Assembly: GCA_035635555.1 (NCBI GenBank)
Contig: DASQAT010000013.1
Coordinates: 62,001-126,000, forward strand
DNA from: Candidatus Dormiibacterota bacterium
Lineage (GTDB): Bacteria > Acidobacteriota > Polarisedimenticolia > Gp22-AA2
DNA length: 64,000 bases
Direction: 5' to 3'
Shown here: positions 31,496 to 40,543 of the stretch, piece after piece
Position numbering within the stretch: the stretch's first letter is position 1
Layout: every line of letters starts with the position of its first letter
Program-made: the position numbers and the translations under genes
Notes under the pieces: generated by a model
Databases searched by the model: none
Told to the model about the DNA's origin: nothing
The model's input: only the letters and a program-made list of their open reading frames with translations

Positions 31496-32623
31496 TCAAA
31501 TTTTGCAAGCCGTCGACGTGAATCGTCGTCCCGGAAGCTGCCGCGCGAGGCCGCGCAGCTCCAGTTGGAGGAGCGTCGCCAGGAGCGGACCGGGCGCCAG
31601 CCCGCACGTCTCGGCCAGCCTCTCGATGCCGACGCCGCGTGTCGCCGGCAGACGGGAAAGAACCCGGCGCTCGTCGGGCGACAGTCCCGTCGAATCCCGC
31701 GCGCCGGCGTCCGGCGCGACCTCCTCCTCAGCCGTCGATCGTTCCGGGCGCGAGGCGACGACCGCCCGCGCCGCGTCCGCGATCTGCGGCGCCAGGTCCT
31801 CCAGCACGTCCGCCGCGGTCCGGCAGACGAGGGCACCGCCGCGCAGGAGACCGTTCGTCCCCTCGGCATTCGGCTCGTCCACGGCGCCGGGGACCGCGTA
31901 TACCAGGCGCCCCTCGTCGGCCGCCAGCTCCGCGGTGATGAGAGACCCCGAGTCGCGCGCCGCCTCCACCACGACCGTGGCCCAGGACAAGGCCGCGATC
32001 ACCCGGTTCCTCTCCGGGAAGTGACGCTTCAGGGGCGAGGCGCCGAATGGGAGCTCCGTCACAACGGCACCCGTGCGCGCGATCGATTCGGCGAGCCGCC
32101 GGTGCTCGACCGGATAGATCCGATCGAGACCCGAGCCCAGAACCGCGATCGTGCGCCCGCCCCCCTCCAGGGCGCCGGCGTGCGCGGCCGCGTCGATGCC
32201 TCGCGCCAGGCCGCTCACGACCGTGTACCCGGACGCCGACAGCGCCCGCCCGAGACCGCGTGCCGTCGCGAGGCCGTGGAGTGTCGCGCGGCGCGAACCG
32301 ACGATGGCGATCGAGAGGACATCCTCGGGCCGCAGACCGCCCCACACGTACAGCAGCCAGGGCGGATCCGACGAAGCGCGCAGCATCGCCGGGTAGCGCT
32401 CGTCCTCGAGGGTCAGTACCGAGGCGCCATGGCTCCGCGCCCGGTGCAGCTCGGCGCGGGCCCCGGCCTCCCATCCTGGATGCAGCTCGGAGGTCAAAGG
32501 TTCCAGGAACGAAGACCAGCCGGCGCCTCCGCGTCCGGCCCCGGCGAAAATCCGCTGCCGCCTGCCGGGGCTGGCGGCGAAGTGCATGTTCAGTGCGGCC
32601 CAGAGCAGGGCCGAGCGGGACAC
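31496..32623 (-). CDS. dprA: DNA-processing protein DprA/Smf
   Basis: A 375-residue protein. The Rossmann-like DprA domain contains IAIVGSRRATLHGLATARGL, VVSGLARGIDAAAHAGAL, LGSGLDRIYPVEHRRLA, FPERNRVIAALSWATVVVEA and SGSLITAELAADEGR. A C-terminal winged-helix/DprA_WH segment begins after about residue 310. DprA loads RecA onto incoming single-stranded DNA during transformation. The GTG start follows GAGG. topA follows after 67 bases, a linkage seen in many bacteria; an AT-rich stretch with TATATT in that gap may carry a separate topA promoter. Confidence 0.94.
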   Translation of the reverse strand: MSRSALLWAALNMHFAASPGRRQRIFAGAGRGGAGWSSFLEPLTSELHPGWEAGARAELHRARSHGASVLTLEDERYPAMLRASSDPPWLLYVWGGLRPEDVLSIAIVGSRRATLHGLATARGLGRALSASGYTVVSGLARGIDAAAHAGALEGGGRTIAVLGSGLDRIYPVEHRRLAESIARTGAVVTELPFGASPLKRHFPERNRVIAALSWATVVVEAARDSGSLITAELAADEGRLVYAVPGAVDEPNAEGTNGLLRGGALVCRTAADVLEDLAPQIADAARAVVASRPERSTAEEEVAPDAGARDSTGLSPDERRVLSRLPATRGVGIERLAETCGLAPGPLLATLLQLELRGLARQLPGRRFTSTACKI

Positions 32624-32677: not shown

Positions 32678-32707
32678 TTGTCAAGGCAAGGGGAGTTGGG
32701 ATATAAG
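32678..32707 (+). promoter_or_regulatory. Sigma-70 promoter for the putative polysaccharide operon
   Basis: TTGTCA (32678-32683), 18-base spacer, TATAAG (32702-32707). It leaves an untranslated leader of about 100-150 bases before the first gene. Confidence 0.65.
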
Positions 32708-32859
32708 AGGCCGCCGACTCGAAAGCGGCGGGAAAGCGCGGGAAACACGGCGCTTGAGTCACCGCGACCTTCCCCATCCAGCCGATCCGGTCAGAGAGAA
32801 ATCACGGGAGTCCGACCGTCCTGCCGTCCGCGCGTTCGTCGCTTCGACTCGGGGCCCCC

Positions 32860-35694
32860 GTGCTCTGCGCCGCCCTCGGCGTCCTCGCGCCCTTCATGGG
32901 CCCGGACCGCCCGCCCGGAGGGACGACCAGCCCGGCCCCTCCTCCGGAGCGCTCCCTGTATGACGAGGCGGTCCGCCTTTACTCCGCCGGACGCTTCCAG
33001 GAGGCGTTGCAGGTGATCCACCGCGCGGCGGGAACGGGCGTGGAGACGACAGCGCTCCGCTCGCTCGCCGGCTGGTGCTGCCTCCGATCGGGAGCGGTTC
33101 GGCGGGCCGAGGCCGAGTTCCGCGCGGCGCTGCGGATCGACTCCGAGGCGGTCGATCCCCACGTCGGCCTGGGGTACGCGCGCCTGCGCGGAGGTTCACC
33201 GGCCGAAGCGGAAGGAGAATTCCGTTTCGCGCTGCGCGGGGAGGCCCGGAATCTCGACGCGCTGAAAGGACTCGGTCTCGCGCTCCGCGACCAGAAGAAG
33301 TACGCTGAAGCGGCGGAGGCGTTCAGTGACGCGCTGCGGCAGGAACCGGGCGATTCCGAGTCCAGGCATCTGCTCGGGCAGGTCCTCGCAGCGGCGGGCG
33401 CGTCGACGGAGTCGCGACCCCGCGGGCCCTCGAGCGAGACGCCGATGAATGTCGTCGCCCGGGCGCGGGACGGCCGGTTCTTCGTCCGCGACAGCGGACG
33501 CTTCCGGCCGCTGTTCGTGAAGGGAGTCAACATGGGGGTGGCGCTTCCGGGACGCTTCCCCGCGGAATTCCCGCAGGACGAGGCGACCTACGGCTCCTTT
33601 CTCTCGGACGTGTCCGGGATGGGGGCGAACGCGGTTCGTCTCTACACCCTCCTGCCACCGGCGTTCTACGCCGCGCTCGACCGGCACAACCGCGGGTCCG
33701 GAACGGGCGGGATCTGGCTCCTGCAGGGCGTGTGGACCGAGCCGCCGGCGGGGGACGACTACGACGGAGAGGCCTTCGTCCGGGAATTCAGGGACGAGAT
33801 CCGCCGCGTGATAGACGCCGTGCACGGCAACCTCGACCTCGGGCCGCGGCCGGGGCACGCACAGGGCGCGTACCGCGCGGATGTCTCGGCGCGCGTGCTC
33901 GGCTACGTGCTGGGGCGCGAGTGGGAGCCCCAGTCGGTGGCGACGTACGACGGCTGGTTCGCGAAAGGCGGCAGGGAGTCGTTCGCCGGGCCCTATTTCA
34001 CGGCCCGCATCGAATACGGCGCCACGCCGTTCGAGCTGTGGCTGGCCCGCACCATGGACTTCGCCGTGCAGTACGAGACCGACACCTACCGCCAGCAGCG
34101 GCCGGTGTCGTTCGTGAACTGGCCCACGCTCGATCCCCTGCGTCATCCGACCGAATCGACCGCCGCGGAGGAGGCCGCCCTGGTCCGCAAAATGGGTGAC
34201 GCGGAGGCCGCGGGGATGATCGAGGCCTACGACGAGTGCGAGGACTGCGTTTCCGTGGATGCGGCGCACATCGTGCCGACCGGGAGGGCGCAGGGCGGGA
34301 GCTTCGCCACCTACCACGCCTATCCTTATTATCCCGACTTCATGAATCTCGACCCCGGTTATGGCCAAGCGCGCGACTCGCGGGGTCCGAGCAATTACAT
34401 CGGCTACCTGCGCGACCTCAAGACGCACCACGGCGCCCAGCCGGTGCTGATCGGCGAGACCGGCGTCCCGAGCAGCCGCGGGGTCTCGCACCTGCAGCCG
34501 CAGGGGTGGAACCACGGCGGCCACAGCGAGCGCGAGCAGGGGGAGATCGACGCCCGGCTGATGATGGACATCGACGAGGCGGGTCTCGCGGGGGGCGTCC
34601 TGTTCGCTCTCGTGGACGAGTGGTTCAAGAGAAACTGGCTGGTGCTTGATTTCGAGACGCCCGCCGAGCGCAAGCCGCTGTGGCTGAACGTCCTGGATCC
34701 GGAGGAGGGGTACGGGATCCTCGCCGCCAGGCCGGGTCAGGCTGGATTCCGGGTGATCATCGACGGCAGGCCTTCCGACTGGACCGGCGTCGCACCGCTT
34801 CTGTCCCGGCGGGAGGGGGGGCCGGAGCGATCGTTCAAGGACGGCTACGATCGCGCGCGGACGCTGCGGGGAATCGAGGTGACCTCGGACGAGGCCTACC
34901 TCTACATCCGGCTCGACGTGGACCGCCTCGACAGCGACGGGGACGGCCTCCCCGACTGGGGCAAGGCGGCCTACCTGATCGGCATCGACACCTATGACGG
35001 TCGCCTGGGAGACCACCGGCTGCCGATCACCGACCCGGCGTCGTCGCCCGCCGGCCTCGAGTTCTGCGTCGTCCTCGACGGCCGGGACACCTCCCGTCTT
35101 CTGGTCGATGCCCCCTACGACATCCAGTCGAACCGCCACCGCCGCCCCTTCGCCTCGGTCGAGAATACCGACGGCCGCTTCGTGGAGATGAAGGTCGAGA
35201 CGAACCGAAGGCGTGTCGGGCGCGACGGCACCGTCTACCCGGCGCGTCAATCGAGCCGCTCGCCGCTCCTCCACGCCTCGATGGATCCTCGCGATCGCGA
35301 CTATTCGACCCTGGCCGACTGGCGCGTGGGAGTCGCAGAGAACCTGATCGAGATCCGCCTGGCCTGGGGGCTTTTGAACGTGACCGATCCGTCCTCGCGC
35401 TGCGTCCTGCACGACGATCCGGGGAATCTCCGCAAGGTCGGGTGCATCGAAACCGCGGGATTCCGTTTCTACGCAGTGGCGGTCAAGCCCGGAGGCACCC
35501 CCTTTGGACCGACCCCGTTCGACGCGCGCCTGGCCGACCGGCTGCCGCGGGGAGACCTCGCGAAGCCGTCCGATCTGCCGATGTACACGTGGCGGGGCTG
35601 GGACCAGCCCGCCTCGCGTATCGAGAAGAAAGAGACGTGGCCGATCCTGAAGCGGGCGTTCGAGTCGCTTCCGAAGCGGAACCCGGCGCCGTGA
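32860..35694 (+). CDS. TPR / glycoside-hydrolase-like TIM barrel / carbohydrate-binding fusion protein
   Basis: A protein of 944 residues from GTG 32860. Residues about 30-185 are TPR repeats (LYDEAVRLYSAGRFQEALQV, KYAEAAEAFSDALRQEPGD). Residues about 195-620 resemble a clan GH-A TIM barrel: FVKGVNMGVALPGRFP, GANAVRLYTLLPP, GYVLGREWEP (E354/E356, possible acid/base) and PVLIGETGVPSSRG (E533, possible nucleophile). Residues about 628-885 resemble a CBM9/DOMON beta-sandwich (FRVIIDGRPSDWTG, SDEAYLYIRLDVDRLDSD). The start is uncertain: no Shine-Dalgarno precedes the GTG, and in-frame codons just upstream would supply the Arg residues expected of a signal peptide (CTG 32821 is possible). First gene of a five-gene operon; overlaps the next by four bases. 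Confidence 0.72.
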   Translation: MLCAALGVLAPFMGPDRPPGGTTSPAPPPERSLYDEAVRLYSAGRFQEALQVIHRAAGTGVETTALRSLAGWCCLRSGAVRRAEAEFRAALRIDSEAVDPHVGLGYARLRGGSPAEAEGEFRFALRGEARNLDALKGLGLALRDQKKYAEAAEAFSDALRQEPGDSESRHLLGQVLAAAGASTESRPRGPSSETPMNVVARARDGRFFVRDSGRFRPLFVKGVNMGVALPGRFPAEFPQDEATYGSFLSDVSGMGANAVRLYTLLPPAFYAALDRHNRGSGTGGIWLLQGVWTEPPAGDDYDGEAFVREFRDEIRRVIDAVHGNLDLGPRPGHAQGAYRADVSARVLGYVLGREWEPQSVATYDGWFAKGGRESFAGPYFTARIEYGATPFELWLARTMDFAVQYETDTYRQQRPVSFVNWPTLDPLRHPTESTAAEEAALVRKMGDAEAAGMIEAYDECEDCVSVDAAHIVPTGRAQGGSFATYHAYPYYPDFMNLDPGYGQARDSRGPSNYIGYLRDLKTHHGAQPVLIGETGVPSSRGVSHLQPQGWNHGGHSEREQGEIDARLMMDIDEAGLAGGVLFALVDEWFKRNWLVLDFETPAERKPLWLNVLDPEEGYGILAARPGQAGFRVIIDGRPSDWTGVAPLLSRREGGPERSFKDGYDRARTLRGIEVTSDEAYLYIRLDVDRLDSDGDGLPDWGKAAYLIGIDTYDGRLGDHRLPITDPASSPAGLEFCVVLDGRDTSRLLVDAPYDIQSNRHRRPFASVENTDGRFVEMKVETNRRRVGRDGTVYPARQSSRSPLLHASMDPRDRDYSTLADWRVGVAENLIEIRLAWGLLNVTDPSSRCVLHDDPGNLRKVGCIETAGFRFYAVAVKPGGTPFGPTPFDARLADRLPRGDLAKPSDLPMYTWRGWDQPASRIEKKETWPILKRAFESLPKRNPAP

Positions 35695-37424
35695 TCCGCA
35701 TCCCTCCGGCCACGCTCGCCCTGATCGCTCTCGCCGCGGCGCCGGCCGCCGGGTCTCCCGTCCGGGCGGCAACACCGGCCGCCGCCGCGCACGAGTCTCC
35801 CGCAGCACCGGCCCCGGGCGACGCGGCCGCGCGTCCCCTGGCCGAGATGATCAAGGAGGCCGACGCCGCGTTCGCACGTGAAGACTTCGGAACGGCCAGG
35901 ACCCTCTACGAGCAGGTGACCCGGCTGCAGCCGGACAACGTCCGCGCCGTGCACCGGCTCGCGCTCCTGCAGTCGTGGGACGACGAACTCGAAGCGTCGG
36001 CGGCCAACTACCGCCGCGCCCTGGCCCTGGCGCCGGACGACTTCGACATCCGGCTCGGGCTCGCCCGTGTGCTGTCCTGGAGGCACGACTACGACGAATC
36101 GATCGCGCTGTACCGGGCGCTGCGAGAGACACATCCCGACGATGCGCGCGTCCTCCTCGGCCTGGGGAACTGTCTCTCGTGGGCCGGCCGCTACTCCGAG
36201 GCCGAGGCCGTCTTCAAGGACATGGAGGATCGCCGGATCGAGCCGGTCCAGGCGCACGCGGGCCGGGCGCGCCTGCGCGGCTGGCAGGGGAACCTGGACG
36301 AGGCGGAGCATTTCTGGCGCGACGTCCTGCGCGCCGATCCCGGCAACCTCGACGCGCGCATCGGCATGGCGTACGTGCACCACTGGCAGGGTCTCGACCG
36401 CACGGCGCGCGAGCAGGCCGACAACATCGTCCTCGACCATCCGGAGAGCAAGGACGCGAAGGAGCTGAAGGAGACGATCCGCCGGACCCTCCGCCCGCAC
36501 GCCGACGCGGACACCTTCCGGTACGGCGACACCGACTCCAACCGGGTGGACGGTGCTGTGGCGTCGTGCACGTTCATGGCCGAGCCGCAGACGTCCATCC
36601 GCATCGCCTACTCGACGTACGACGCCTCGTTCCGCTGCAAGGACGGGCGGTTCTGCGACGAGCCGGGTCTCGCCGTCGGCGACGCGATCGACACGCGGGC
36701 GCAGTCGCTCTCGGGCACGCTGACGTCGCGCGTGATCCGGCCGCTGACCTTCAACGCCCGCCTGGGCGCGGTCCGCGAGGAGACCTTCGGCGGAGGGGCG
36801 CGCCTGGTCGGAACGCTCGGCGGCTACCTGCGCTGGCAGGTCGGGCCGCGGTTCGCCGTGGGAACGAGCGGGGGGCGCGAGGCGTTCCTCGACACCGCTC
36901 CCCTCATCGACCGCGGCATCCGAACGACCGACGCGAACGCGCGCGTGGAGTTCCGCTACCGGCCCGCGTGGCTCCTGTCGGGGAGCGCCGGAGCCGCGTC
37001 GTTCTCCGACGGCAACGCGCGCCGCACCGCGGGCGCCGCGCTCGAGTGGCGTCTGCCCGTGTCCCATCCGTGGGTCTCGGGCACCTTCGACGTGCGCTAC
37101 CGCGGATTCAACGCCGACGAGGACAACGGCTACTTCGACCCGCTGCGCTACGACTCGGAGCTCCTGACCGTGGCGGTCCGGGACGACTGCCGCGACGGGA
37201 GGTTCTACTGGCATCTGGAGGGAACTTACGGGCGGCAGGCCTTCACGCTCGGTGCCGTCAAGCGTGACGACGCGGTGAGCGGCGGCAACGCCCTGGCGGG
37301 GATCAACTTCGCGAACGGGAGGGCGGCCTTCGAGGCGTCGTACGCGCGCAGCGACTACGCCCTGAACGTCGCGCAGGGATTCACGTACAGCCGGACGGGG
37401 TTCTACTTCCGGTTCCGGTTCTAA
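35691..37424 (+). CDS. TPR/outer-membrane beta-barrel protein (YaiO/BcsC-like exporter)
   Basis: A 577-residue protein. A signal peptide (PATLALIALAAAPAAGSPVRA) precedes six or so TPR repeats (residues about 50-260; for example DFDIRLGLARVLSWRHDYDE). The C-terminal part from about residue 280 has alternating strands, aromatic girdles and a final Phe (FYFRFRF), as expected for an outer-membrane barrel. The arrangement fits the YaiO or BcsC/PgaA logic: periplasmic TPR scaffold plus export pore. The GTG overlaps the previous stop (GTGA). An outer-membrane pore for the polymer made by the downstream GT2 is inferred. Confidence 0.8.
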   Translation: MIRIPPATLALIALAAAPAAGSPVRAATPAAAAHESPAAPAPGDAAARPLAEMIKEADAAFAREDFGTARTLYEQVTRLQPDNVRAVHRLALLQSWDDELEASAANYRRALALAPDDFDIRLGLARVLSWRHDYDESIALYRALRETHPDDARVLLGLGNCLSWAGRYSEAEAVFKDMEDRRIEPVQAHAGRARLRGWQGNLDEAEHFWRDVLRADPGNLDARIGMAYVHHWQGLDRTAREQADNIVLDHPESKDAKELKETIRRTLRPHADADTFRYGDTDSNRVDGAVASCTFMAEPQTSIRIAYSTYDASFRCKDGRFCDEPGLAVGDAIDTRAQSLSGTLTSRVIRPLTFNARLGAVREETFGGGARLVGTLGGYLRWQVGPRFAVGTSGGREAFLDTAPLIDRGIRTTDANARVEFRYRPAWLLSGSAGAASFSDGNARRTAGAALEWRLPVSHPWVSGTFDVRYRGFNADEDNGYFDPLRYDSELLTVAVRDDCRDGRFYWHLEGTYGRQAFTLGAVKRDDAVSGGNALAGINFANGRAAFEASYARSDYALNVAQGFTYSRTGFYFRFRF

Positions 37425-37455
37425 GACGCGAAGGGACGGAACGGGGGCCGACGGA

Positions 37456-37848
37456 ATGGCGACGGCGGTGCCGGGCCGGGAACGGATCCTGATCGCGGAC
37501 GGCGACCCGCTGGCGAGGCGCTTCGTGGGCGCGCTTTTGGCGAACAACGGCTATGAGGTGCACCTCGCCGAGGACGGCGACTCGGTTCTTCGGAGCGCCG
37601 TCTCGCTGAAGCCCCGTCTCCTGGTCATCGACCTCGTTCTCCCGGGCAAGGACGGCTTCGAGGTGCTGCACGCCCTGAAGGGGGAGCCGGCCACGGCCCG
37701 GCTTCCGGTGCTGATCCTTTCGGTGAAGGACCGCGAGGAGGACGTCGTCAAGGCTCTCAGCCTCGGAGCGGAGGACTACGTGAGCAGGCCGTTCAGCACG
37801 CGGGAGCTTCTGGCCCGCATCCGCAAGATCCTGGAAAGAACCGGGTAG
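37456..37848 (+). CDS. Stand-alone receiver-domain protein with altered conserved residues
   Basis: A 130-residue REC domain without an output domain. The phospho-acceptor D59 (VIDLVLPGKDGF) and S89 (LILSVKD) are present. The second of the two acidic metal ligands is Gly (ILIADGDP, G16), and the invariant Lys before Pro is Arg (DYVSRPF, R111). Such changes suggest altered or phosphorylation-independent signalling. No kinase is adjacent. It sits inside the polysaccharide operon, 31 bases after the barrel gene and five before the HEAT gene, so it may gate the synthase. Confidence 0.88.
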   Translation: MATAVPGRERILIADGDPLARRFVGALLANNGYEVHLAEDGDSVLRSAVSLKPRLLVIDLVLPGKDGFEVLHALKGEPATARLPVLILSVKDREEDVVKALSLGAEDYVSRPFSTRELLARIRKILERTG

Positions 37849-37853
37849 CCGCG

Positions 37854-39107
37854 GTGGAGCCGATGCGTCTCCTGATGGTCCGGGTCGTCGAGGGAGTCGG
37901 CGGGTTCCTCCTCCTGCTCACCGTGGCCATCGTCATCAACAAGGCGCTGCGGGAGATGGGGGAGAGGCTCGACCGGCGCAGGCGCGCCCTGCTCGAGCCC
38001 CTGGTGTTCGAGTACCTCGGTGCGGCCACGTCCAGGCCGCTCCGTGACGTCCTGCCGGAACCGCCGTCGCGGCGCGATCGGCGTCTGCTGGAGCGGATCC
38101 TCCTGGAATCGGCGCGTCTCGTGAAGGGAAGCACCCAGGAGCGGATCACCGCCGCCTTCGAGGGGCAGGGCGCGGTGCGCGAGGCGATCCGCGCCCTGGA
38201 AAGCGCCCGCTGGTGGAAGCGCGCCGACGCCGCCGAAAAGCTGGGCCTGATGCGAAGCAAGGCGGCCGTCGAACCGCTCGTCCAGCGGATGAACGATCCG
38301 GAGCCGGAAGTCCGCATCCGCGCGGCGCGCGCCCTGGGTCTCATCCGGGGCAGGACCTCGATCCGCCCGCTCGTCGGCGCCCTGGCCGATCCCAGCCGCT
38401 GGTCGGCCATCCGTGTCGCCGAGATTCTGATCAGCGTGGGCAGCGAGGCCGTGGACGAGCTGCTCGCGGCCTTCGACACCCTGCCGCAGAACGGCCGTGT
38501 CTCGGCCCTCGACGTGCTGGGCCGCATCCGGGGTCTGCGTGCCCTCGGGCTGATGAAGAGCTGCCTCCTCGATCCGCACCCCGACATCCGGGCGCGCGCG
38601 GCGCACGGGCTCGGCCTCATCGGCGACCCGGGAACCACACCGGATCTGGTCGCGGCGCTCCAGGACCAGGAGTGGCCGGTACGCGCCATGGCCGCCAAGT
38701 CGCTCGGCAGGCTCGGGGACCCGTCGGCCATCCTCCCCCTGCGGGAGGCGATGAAGGACCGCCGGTGGTGGGTACGCTACAACTCCGGTGAAGCGCTGCG
38801 CCACATGGGGAACGCGGGTCTCGAGGCGCTCACCGACATGCTGAGCTCGGACGATCCGTACGCCCGTCACATGGCCGTGGCGCAGCTCGAGGAGGGGCGG
38901 GTCATCGACCAGTTCGTCGCCGAATTGACCTCGAGCGACAGCCCCACGCGCGCCGCGGCCATCCGATTCATCGACAAGGTCACCGCGGCGGCGCGCATCG
39001 ACGAGCGCACGCGGCAGGCGGCCACGAGCGCTCAGGAGGGCGTGCGCCAGGCCCTGTCCCATATCCTCAGGGCGCCCGCGCCGCCCGGAGGCGGAGGCGT
39101 TCGATGA
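37854..39107 (+). CDS. Membrane-anchored HEAT-repeat protein
   Basis: A 417-residue protein. One N-terminal transmembrane helix (GVGGFLLLLTVAIVIN) precedes a basic linker and about eight HEAT/PBS-lyase-like repeats (WKRADAAEKLGLMRSKAAVE, VRIRAARALGLIRGRTSIRP, VRYNSGEALRHMGN). The repeats would face the cytoplasm beside the GT2 synthase. No enzymatic residues are seen; a scaffold or regulator linking the receiver to the synthase is plausible. The GTG at 37854 or the ATG at 37863 could be the start; GGAG precedes the latter. Overlaps the GT2 gene by four bases. Confidence 0.8.
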   Translation: MEPMRLLMVRVVEGVGGFLLLLTVAIVINKALREMGERLDRRRRALLEPLVFEYLGAATSRPLRDVLPEPPSRRDRRLLERILLESARLVKGSTQERITAAFEGQGAVREAIRALESARWWKRADAAEKLGLMRSKAAVEPLVQRMNDPEPEVRIRAARALGLIRGRTSIRPLVGALADPSRWSAIRVAEILISVGSEAVDELLAAFDTLPQNGRVSALDVLGRIRGLRALGLMKSCLLDPHPDIRARAAHGLGLIGDPGTTPDLVAALQDQEWPVRAMAAKSLGRLGDPSAILPLREAMKDRRWWVRYNSGEALRHMGNAGLEALTDMLSSDDPYARHMAVAQLEEGRVIDQFVAELTSSDSPTRAAAIRFIDKVTAAARIDERTRQAATSAQEGVRQALSHILRAPAPPGGGGVR

Positions 39108-40543
39108 CCTGGATCTCGATCCTGACCCTCACCGTCCTCGGGTTCAACCGCTGGGTGATCTACTACTTCGGACTCCTCAACGGCATCTATCTCCTGCTCT
39201 TTCTGGTGTCGTTCGTCGAAGTGATGCGTTTCGTCAAGCGGACGTTCTTCTCCGATTACGAGCAGATCCTCCGGTCCGACATGACCTGGCCGATCTCGAT
39301 GATCGTCCCGGCCTTCAACGAGGCGCGTTCCATCGTCGAGACCGTGCGCTCGCTTCTGGGAGTGAACTACGGTCAGTTCGAGGTCGTCATCGTGAACGAC
39401 GGTTCGACCGACGGGACCCTCGAGCGCCTCATCGAGACGTTCGAGCTGAAGCGCACCGACCGGATCTACCACCGCACCCTGCCGACCGGCCCGGTGCGCG
39501 GGATCTACTGGTCGCTCGAATACGCCAACCTGATCGTCGTGGACAAGGAATGGAGCGGGAAGGCGGAGGCGCTGAACACCGGCATCAACGTGTCCCGCTA
39601 CCCCCTGTTCTGCTCCGTCGACGCCGACTCGATCATCGAGGACAACGCGCTCCTCCGCGTCGTCAAGCCGTTCATGGAGCATCCTCAGGAAATGGTCGCG
39701 GCGGGAGGCATCGTGCGCATCGTGAACGGCTGCGAGGTGCGCGAGGGGCGCGTGCTGCGGATCGGCCTGCCGAAGAAGGCCCTGCCCGTCTTCCAGGTCG
39801 TGGAGTATCTCCGCGCGTTCCTCGGGGGGCGCATCGGCTGGAGCAGCCTGAGGTCCCTGCTGATCATCTCCGGCGCCTTCGGGCTGTACCGTAAGTCGGA
39901 GGTCATCGCCGCGGGCGGTTACGACTCGTGGTCCGAGACCGAGGACCTCGAGCTGGTGCTGAAGCTCCACGAGCACATGCGCAGGAGCGGACGGAAGTAC
40001 CGCATCGTCTTCGTCCCCGACCCGGTCTGCTGGACCGAGGTCCCGAGCACCTTCCGGGTGCTGGCGCGCCAGCGCAACCGTTGGCATCGGGGCATGCTGC
40101 AGAGCCTCTGGCGCCACAGGCGGATGATCCTGAACCCGGAGCACGGCGCCATCGGCATGCTCGGACTCCCCTATTTTCTGCTGTTCGAGACCCTCGGCCC
40201 CTTCGTCGAGATCCTCGGCTACGTCATGGTCGCCCTGTCCTTCTGGCTCGGAGTCCTGAATCTCGATTTCTTCGTGCTCTTCCTCATCTTCGCCATCTTC
40301 TTCGGCGTCTTCCTGTCCGTCGCCGCCGTCCTGCTGGAAGAGATCTCCTTCAGGCGCTATCCCGGCTGGGAGCATCTCGCCCGGCTGGTCCTCTACGGTG
40401 TCCTCGAGAACCTCGGCTACCGCCAGAGCCTCGCGCTGTTCAAGGTGAAGGCGTTCTGGGACTTCCTGCGCGGCCACCGCAAGGCCTGGGGGCGGATGGA
40501 GCGGGAGGGGTTCCGGGCGGCCGGGGAAAGACCCGCGGCCTGA
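39104..40543 (+). CDS. Processive family-2 glycosyltransferase (polysaccharide synthase type)
   Basis: A 479-residue membrane GT2 of the cellulose/hyaluronan/PNAG synthase type. An N-terminal TM helix (residues about 17-40) comes first. The GT-A core follows with ISMIVPAFNEARSIVETVRS, VVIVNDGSTDGT, WSGKAEALNTGINVS, DADSIIE (DxD), SETEDLELVLKL (TED acid) and ARQRNRWHRGM (Q/RxxRW, the mark of processive enzymes). Two to three C-terminal TM helices (LLFETLGPFVEILGYVMVAL, FFVLFLIFAIFFGVFLSVAA) finish it. No PilZ domain is visible. It probably polymerises and translocates a beta-linked glycan. ATGA overlap with the HEAT gene. Confidence 0.88.
   Translation: MTWISILTLTVLGFNRWVIYYFGLLNGIYLLLFLVSFVEVMRFVKRTFFSDYEQILRSDMTWPISMIVPAFNEARSIVETVRSLLGVNYGQFEVVIVNDGSTDGTLERLIETFELKRTDRIYHRTLPTGPVRGIYWSLEYANLIVVDKEWSGKAEALNTGINVSRYPLFCSVDADSIIEDNALLRVVKPFMEHPQEMVAAGGIVRIVNGCEVREGRVLRIGLPKKALPVFQVVEYLRAFLGGRIGWSSLRSLLIISGAFGLYRKSEVIAAGGYDSWSETEDLELVLKLHEHMRRSGRKYRIVFVPDPVCWTEVPSTFRVLARQRNRWHRGMLQSLWRHRRMILNPEHGAIGMLGLPYFLLFETLGPFVEILGYVMVALSFWLGVLNLDFFVLFLIFAIFFGVFLSVAAVLLEEISFRRYPGWEHLARLVLYGVLENLGYRQSLALFKVKAFWDFLRGHRKAWGRMEREGFRAAGERPAA

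What the first reader, a model, noticed from the sequence alone, without database searches (positions are those of the whole stretch)
32678..40543. Uncharacterised polysaccharide synthesis and export operon with hydrolase, porin, degenerate receiver and HEAT scaffold
Seen: five genes on one strand with overlaps or gaps of at most 31 bases behind one promoter; a GT2 with processive motifs, a TPR-barrel pore and a TPR/GH-A-like fusion. Known: cellulose, PNAG and alginate systems combine a GT2, a TPR/barrel exporter and a hydrolase. Here a receiver and a membrane HEAT protein replace PilZ-type control, which I do not recognise from those systems.
Basis: partly seen in the sequence, partly recalled or inferred. 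Interest (0 to 1): 0.75.

Follow-up and report, generated by a model that had tools for sequence, protein, structure and literature searches.

The report
GT2–HEAT polysaccharide synthesis and export operon
An acidobacterium carries a compact five-gene unit that very probably makes, trims and exports a sugar polymer, and its core (a sugar-polymerising enzyme nearly always paired with a membrane-anchored HEAT-repeat protein and usually a signalling receiver) turns out to be an apparently undescribed module spread over at least nine bacterial phyla.

Summary
Five same-strand genes (32860-40543; overlaps of 4, gaps of at most 31) sit between dprA and folC behind a TTGTCA-N18-TATAAG promoter conserved in three relatives. 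They encode a TPR/clan GH-A glycosidase, a TPR/16-strand outer-membrane barrel (best folds BcsC, PgaA, PelB), a receiver, an N-anchored HEAT protein and a GT2 with DxD, ED and QRxRW motifs.

The unit is conserved. HEAT lies directly upstream of the GT2 in 74 of 76 testable relatives from nine phyla and in nearly all 34 Acidobacteriota relatives re-checked. A receiver is present in 55 of 67. The GH family (both catalytic Glu invariant, 27/27) recurs beside the GT2 in Acidobacteriota, a gammaproteobacterium, Bacillota and Actinomycetota. The TPR/barrel occurs in 29 of 51 diderm and 0 of 29 monoderm loci.

Corrections: the receiver is canonical in nearly all relatives, so its degeneracy is clade-specific. 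Control is not free of c-di-GMP: in Bacillota the receiver is fused to GGDEF, often with a hybrid kinase in the operon.

Best reading: a synthase-dependent exopolysaccharide system in which HEAT is an obligate synthase partner taking receiver input. Polymer, processivity and HEAT role are inferred. No published description was found. New variant of a known kind.

The parts
32678..32707 (+). sigma-70-like promoter TTGTCA-N18-TATAAG
   Evidence: single match in window, 0 expected; both hexamers conserved in L009, L012 and L010 with diverged spacer
32821..32859 (+). probable N-terminal extension of g1 from a CTG start (GGGAG at 32806-32810 upstream), completing a signal peptide
   Evidence: in-frame conservation with L009 and L010; no ATG/GTG/TTG in frame upstream of 32860. 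Uncertain
32860..35694 (+). g1: TPR domain (about aa 30-181) + clan GH-A TIM barrel + C-terminal beta-rich domain (CBM9-like by eye only); acid/base E354, nucleophile E533
   Evidence: Pfam TPR only; AF2 model of aa 190-944 pTM 0.89; Foldseek/VIA best GH157, Z 29.4; both Glu invariant in 27 homologues
35691..37424 (+). g2: signal peptide, TPR solenoid (aa 50-266), 16-strand outer-membrane barrel (aa 270-576), C-terminal Phe
   Evidence: Foldseek best hits BcsC 9b8a/9b8h, PgaA barrel 4y25, PelBC 9h80
37456..37848 (+). g3: stand-alone receiver; D59 and S89 kept, G16 in place of second acid, R111 in place of Lys
   Evidence: Pfam Response_reg 7.5e-24; residue table
37854..39107 (+). g4: N-terminal transmembrane helix (about aa 4-22) followed by Arg/Lys-rich linker and HEAT solenoid
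   Evidence: Pfam HEAT_2 1.4e-37; hydropathy: TM near N-terminus in 66 of 72 homologues
39104..40543 (+). g5: GT2 synthase, N- and C-terminal TM helices, motifs ND98-99G, D173AD175, TED281, Q323RNRW327
   Evidence: Pfam Glycos_transf_2, NCBIfam best PgaC/IcaA 122.8 bits, below its cut-off 422; motif residues in >=78 of 79 homologues

Best explanation
The operon encodes a synthase-dependent exopolysaccharide machine. Shown by sequence/structure: an inner-membrane GT2 with processive-synthase motifs; a membrane-anchored HEAT-repeat protein obligately linked to it; a receiver; a secreted TPR-linked clan GH-A glycosidase with both catalytic glutamates; a TPR-16-strand barrel of the BcsC/PgaA/PelB fold. 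Inferred mechanism: the GT2 polymerises a nucleotide-sugar (probably UDP-Glc or UDP-GlcNAc, as no precursor genes are in the operon) and pushes the chain across the inner membrane; the cytoplasmic HEAT solenoid docks on the GT2 as its obligate partner (the place PgaD, BcsB or PilZ takes elsewhere) and receives the receiver, whose state switches the synthase on or off; g1 cuts or transglycosylates nascent chains in the periplasm and g2 exports them. In monoderms the same core works without the barrel, and in Bacillota the receiver also carries a diguanylate cyclase and sits beside a hybrid kinase.
For: HEAT directly upstream of GT2 in 74/76 testable loci (one of the two misses, L086, has a HEAT-cluster gene there), gap <=50 nt in 67/74 and overlapping in 38/74. 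Almost all of 34 Acidobacteriota relatives re-checked show the same. Receiver in 55/67, canonical in relatives. GH within the same cluster in Acidobacteriota, a gammaproteobacterium, Bacillota and Actinomycetota; among 41 close genomes GH is in 16 of 23 with the GT2 and 1 of 18 without. GH Glu residues invariant 27/27 and placed after beta-4 and beta-7. Barrel fold. TPR/barrel 29/51 diderm vs 0/29 monoderm loci, Fisher p 3e-8, as an outer-membrane exporter predicts. GT2 catalytic and QRxRW motifs; P0005 aligns to PgaC 24.6% over 333 aa, E 5e-23. Bacillota receivers fused to GGDEF 15/17.
Against: No biochemical evidence; processivity, polymer and direction of regulation are untested. Many diderm loci (22/51, some on short contigs) show no nearby TPR/barrel. 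Twelve of 67 loci lack a detected receiver. In this clade the receiver has lost the second acid, so phosphorylation here may be weak or absent. HEAT-GT2 contact was not modelled. Loci were gathered by GT2 similarity and are not independent.
Confidence: 0.72

Rival explanations
1. The GT2 is a non-processive or lipid-linked transferase that decorates a lipid carrier or surface glycan, and the GH and barrel handle a glycan made elsewhere.
For: Bacterial GT2s with 3-5 TM helices include lipid glycosyltransferases; the usual motif in relatives is GED, not TED; some relatives (L017, L018, L021, L022, L024) carry next door a membrane protein whose sequence looks to me like a phosphatase/polyprenol-kinase fusion (no Pfam hit).
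Against: QRxRW is kept in 79/79; best curated model is PgaC/IcaA; linkage with a TPR-barrel of the synthase-dependent exporter fold and a periplasmic GH.
Confidence: 0.18
2. The unit is a surface-glycan modification or degradation cluster (the GH acts on foreign beta-glucan and the barrel is an uptake porin).
For: Closest GH fold is GH157 endo-beta-1,3-glucanase.
Against: Obligate GT2-HEAT core; the barrel is of the exporter type (BcsC/PgaA/PelB), not SusCD or an uptake porin; no sugar transporter or catabolic gene in the operon.
Confidence: 0.06
3. The receiver acts only as a transcription or protein-interaction adaptor unrelated to synthase activity, and HEAT is merely an assembly scaffold.
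For: Lost second acid and K->R in the window protein.
Against: Canonical residues nearly everywhere else; the receiver stands next to HEAT and lacks a DNA-binding domain; fused to GGDEF in Bacillota.
Confidence: 0.3

Closest known systems
PNAG synthase system (PgaABCD)
   Same: GT2 nearest to PgaC/IcaA (24.6% identity, E 5e-23); TPR + barrel exporter like PgaA (TIGR03939 TPR part 6.7e-21; fold 4y25); secreted hydrolase domain in the operon
   Different: No PgaB-type deacetylase, no PgaD; HEAT and receiver in their place; hydrolase is clan GH-A, TPR-linked; all model scores far below curated cut-offs
Bacterial cellulose synthase (BcsABZC)
   Same: Logic synthase + periplasmic hydrolase + TPR barrel; best structural hits of g2 are BcsC
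   Different: No PilZ on the GT2 and no BcsB; GT2 only 20% identical to BcsA over 362 aa, E 2.6e-5; hydrolase not GH8
Psl hydrolase PslG / GH157 endo-beta-1,3-glucanase (clan GH-A; PslG from own knowledge)
   Same: Clan GH-A TIM barrel with Glu after strands 4 and 7
   Different: About 15% identity to LaGH157; acid/base Glu preceded by R/I/V/T instead of the usual Asn; extra TPR domain and C-terminal beta-domain
E. coli yaiO-yaiP-yaiS locus
   Same: GT2 plus YaiO-type barrel; a Bacteroidota member of this module has a YaiO Pfam match
   Different: No HEAT, receiver or GH-A enzyme; GT2 26% identical to YaiP over 250 aa

Membership tests
Synthase-dependent EPS system (definition in PMC7112194) | inner-membrane polysaccharide synthase (GT2 with processive motifs) | tested here: met
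   motifs in >=78/79, TM helices, best model PgaC; activity not tested
Synthase-dependent EPS system (definition in PMC7112194) | TPR domain coupled to outer-membrane pore | tested here: met
   16 strands after TPR solenoid, BcsC/PgaA/PelB folds
Synthase-dependent EPS system (definition in PMC7112194) | periplasmic modification/hydrolase enzyme | tested here: met
   GH-A fold and catalytic Glu pair; location by probable signal peptide only
Synthase-dependent EPS system (definition in PMC7112194) | c-di-GMP-binding regulatory domain or co-polymerase | tested here: inconclusive
   Pfam found no PilZ/GGDEF in the window operon; PilZ proteins elsewhere in the genome; GGDEF fused to the receiver in Bacillota; HEAT may be the co-polymerase
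PNAG (Pga/Ica) | PgaC/IcaA equivalog and PgaB deacetylase | tested here: not met
   122.8 bits against cut-off 422.3; no deacetylase in g1 by Pfam
Cellulose (Bcs) | BcsA equivalog with PilZ, BcsB | tested here: not met
   TIGR03030 38.2 bits against 699.1; no PilZ or BcsB in the five genes
GH157 | sequence membership in GH157 | tested here: inconclusive
   fold Z 29.4, rmsd 2.9, 312 aligned, 15% identity; no GH157 profile used
Canonical receiver | two acids, phospho-Asp, T/S, Lys | tested here: not met
   window: D15 G16, D59, S89, R111; canonical in most relatives

The most novel reading that the evidence does not exclude
A further class of synthase-dependent polysaccharide machine, shared by monoderms and diderms, whose synthase is gated through a dedicated membrane HEAT protein by a phospho-receiver rather than by direct c-di-GMP binding, with its own unclassified clan GH-A hydrolase family.
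Probability: 0.4. Interest if true: 0.8.

Novelty: new variant of a known kind. Interest (0 to 1): 0.62.

Why it matters
Five polymers were counted as synthase-dependent in a 2020 survey (PMC7112194), all tied to c-di-GMP-type control. A GT2-HEAT-receiver core found in nine phyla would add a widespread, undescribed route to exopolysaccharide and a new kind of synthase partner, with a matching GH-A enzyme whose specificity could reveal the polymer.

Tried and rejected
Replacement of c-di-GMP control: rejected as general, since Bacillota versions carry GGDEF. Degenerate receiver as a system feature: rejected. Filing under PNAG or cellulose: curated cut-offs not reached. The 392-aa membrane protein found beside the GT2 in Bacteroidota and fused to the GH in Bacillota was sought in the window's genome: no match, though without a positive control. 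Literature searches for HEAT + GT2/EPS systems gave nothing relevant in the held open-access library (the HEAT mention in PMC12419801 concerns beta-catenin); subscription papers and preprints are not covered. The GT2 tree with PgaC, BcsA, YaiP outgroups was a quick tree with saturated outgroup branches, so it does not prove one clade; it shows that GT2s group mainly by phylum.

Full report
Observation. The window lies in a 4.28-Mb, 59-contig assembly (G000:C13:62001-126000) whose nearest GT2 relatives are Acidobacteria gp22 MAGs. Upstream on the opposite strand lies a dprA-like gene (31496-32623) and a topA-like gene; downstream, convergent, a folC-like gene (names by eye). Gene-call neighbours show the same flanks in close relatives. 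The promoter TTGTCA-N18-TATAAG at 32678-32707 occurs once in 64 kb with none expected, and both hexamers are kept in L009, L012 and L010 with a diverged spacer. No GTG/ATG/TTG precedes 32860 in frame, but the frame is conserved from a CTG at 32821 in L009 and L010, so g1 may start there.

g1. Pfam sees only TPRs. The model of aa 190-944, built on 25 homologues, has pTM 0.89; it has a (beta/alpha)8 barrel with E354 just after strand 4 and E533 at the end of strand 7, the clan GH-A arrangement. Both are invariant in 27 homologues spanning Acidobacteriota, a gammaproteobacterium, Bacillota and Actinomycetota. The best structural match is GH157 endo-beta-1,3-glucanase (Z 29.4, 312 aligned, 2.9 A, 15% identity), then GH2 beta-glucuronidases. 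The residue before the acid/base Glu is R, I, V or T, not Asn. Substrate is therefore open; beta-linked glycan is a fair guess.

g2. Signal peptide, TPR solenoid, 16 beta-strands and a C-terminal Phe (mean pLDDT 73.6, the later strands poor). Top Foldseek matches include BcsC with and without cellotetraose, the PgaA barrel and PelBC. Global TM-scores are modest (0.34-0.39), so the statement is about fold type.

g3. The receiver keeps D59 and S89 but has G16 and R111. L009 and L010 have G or S at the second acid and keep Lys; nearly all other relatives are canonical. Because this is one MAG, R111 could be strain-specific or an error.

g4. HEAT solenoid behind one N-terminal TM helix followed by an Arg/Lys-rich stretch, so the solenoid is probably cytoplasmic (inference). 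66 of 72 homologues have the TM.

g5. GT2 with NDGS, DAD, ED and QRxRW motifs conserved in 78-79 of 79. The nearest curated model is PgaC/IcaA, well below its cut-off.

Conservation. 80 GT2 relatives were fetched. Where at least 1.4 kb upstream was available, HEAT is directly upstream in 74 of 76; receiver in 55 of 67. The HEAT-GT2 gap is 50 nt or less in 67 of 74 and overlapping in 38. In a separate set of 34 Acidobacteriota relatives loci almost every one again has HEAT upstream; L116 and L117 (the divergent 41% paralogues) have their HEAT match on the far side or further away. These loci partly duplicate the first set. Within 41 close genomes the GH occurs in 16 of 23 with the GT2 and 1 of 18 without. 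In a phylum sample, 63 of 297 Acidobacteriota genomes have the GT2 at E <= 1e-60. The 79 GT2s come from nine named phyla and group largely by phylum (quick tree).

Diderm/monoderm test. If g2 is the outer-membrane exporter, monoderms should lack it. TPR/barrel-type genes lie within 6 kb in 29 of 51 diderm loci and 0 of 29 monoderm loci (p 3e-8; relatedness not corrected). Monoderms retain GH, receiver, HEAT and GT2.

Regulation. In Bacillota the receiver protein is usually Hpt-REC-GGDEF-REC (15 of 17 with GGDEF, 10 with Hpt), and in L073 a PAS hybrid histidine kinase lies between it and the GH. So a phosphorelay, and in that phylum c-di-GMP, belongs to the ancestral setting; in the window only a partly degenerate receiver is left, with no kinase in the operon. 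The likeliest mechanism is receiver docking to HEAT, and HEAT gating the GT2. The docking steps are inference.

Comparison. Three of four defining parts of Gram-negative synthase-dependent systems (PMC7112194) are met; the fourth, c-di-GMP binding/co-polymerase, is replaced or hidden. That survey does not mention HEAT or receivers. PNAG and cellulose membership fail at curated cut-offs. Hence a new variant of a known kind.

Limits. No activity, polymer or complex evidence; gene calls in GC-rich loci are rough; the literature check covers open-access papers only.

Noticed in passing
L073:362-3574, L042:424-1602, L056:11449-12537: A membrane-anchored extracytoplasmic family of 360-400 aa with no Pfam match stands alone beside the GT2 in Bacteroidota/Ignavibacteria and Brevibacillus, and is fused N-terminally to the GH in Bacillota.
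   Followed up: partly
L017:12680-14908, L021:12683-14155, L022:8843-10315: A membrane protein family without Pfam match sits downstream of the GT2 in Polarisedimenticola and Myxococcales; by eye it resembles a dual-specificity-phosphatase-like part plus a polyprenol/phytol kinase-like part.
   Followed up: no
L027:4000-6420 (-): Sulfatase-fold (LTA synthase/phosphoethanolamine-transferase-like) membrane protein near the HEAT-GT2 pair, seen in eight loci.
   Followed up: no
L116, L117: A second, divergent GT2 paralogue (41% identity) in two class-level relatives, with the HEAT match not directly upstream.
   Followed up: no
window 32821-32860: Possible CTG start codon for g1, conserved in frame in two relatives.
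   Followed up: partly
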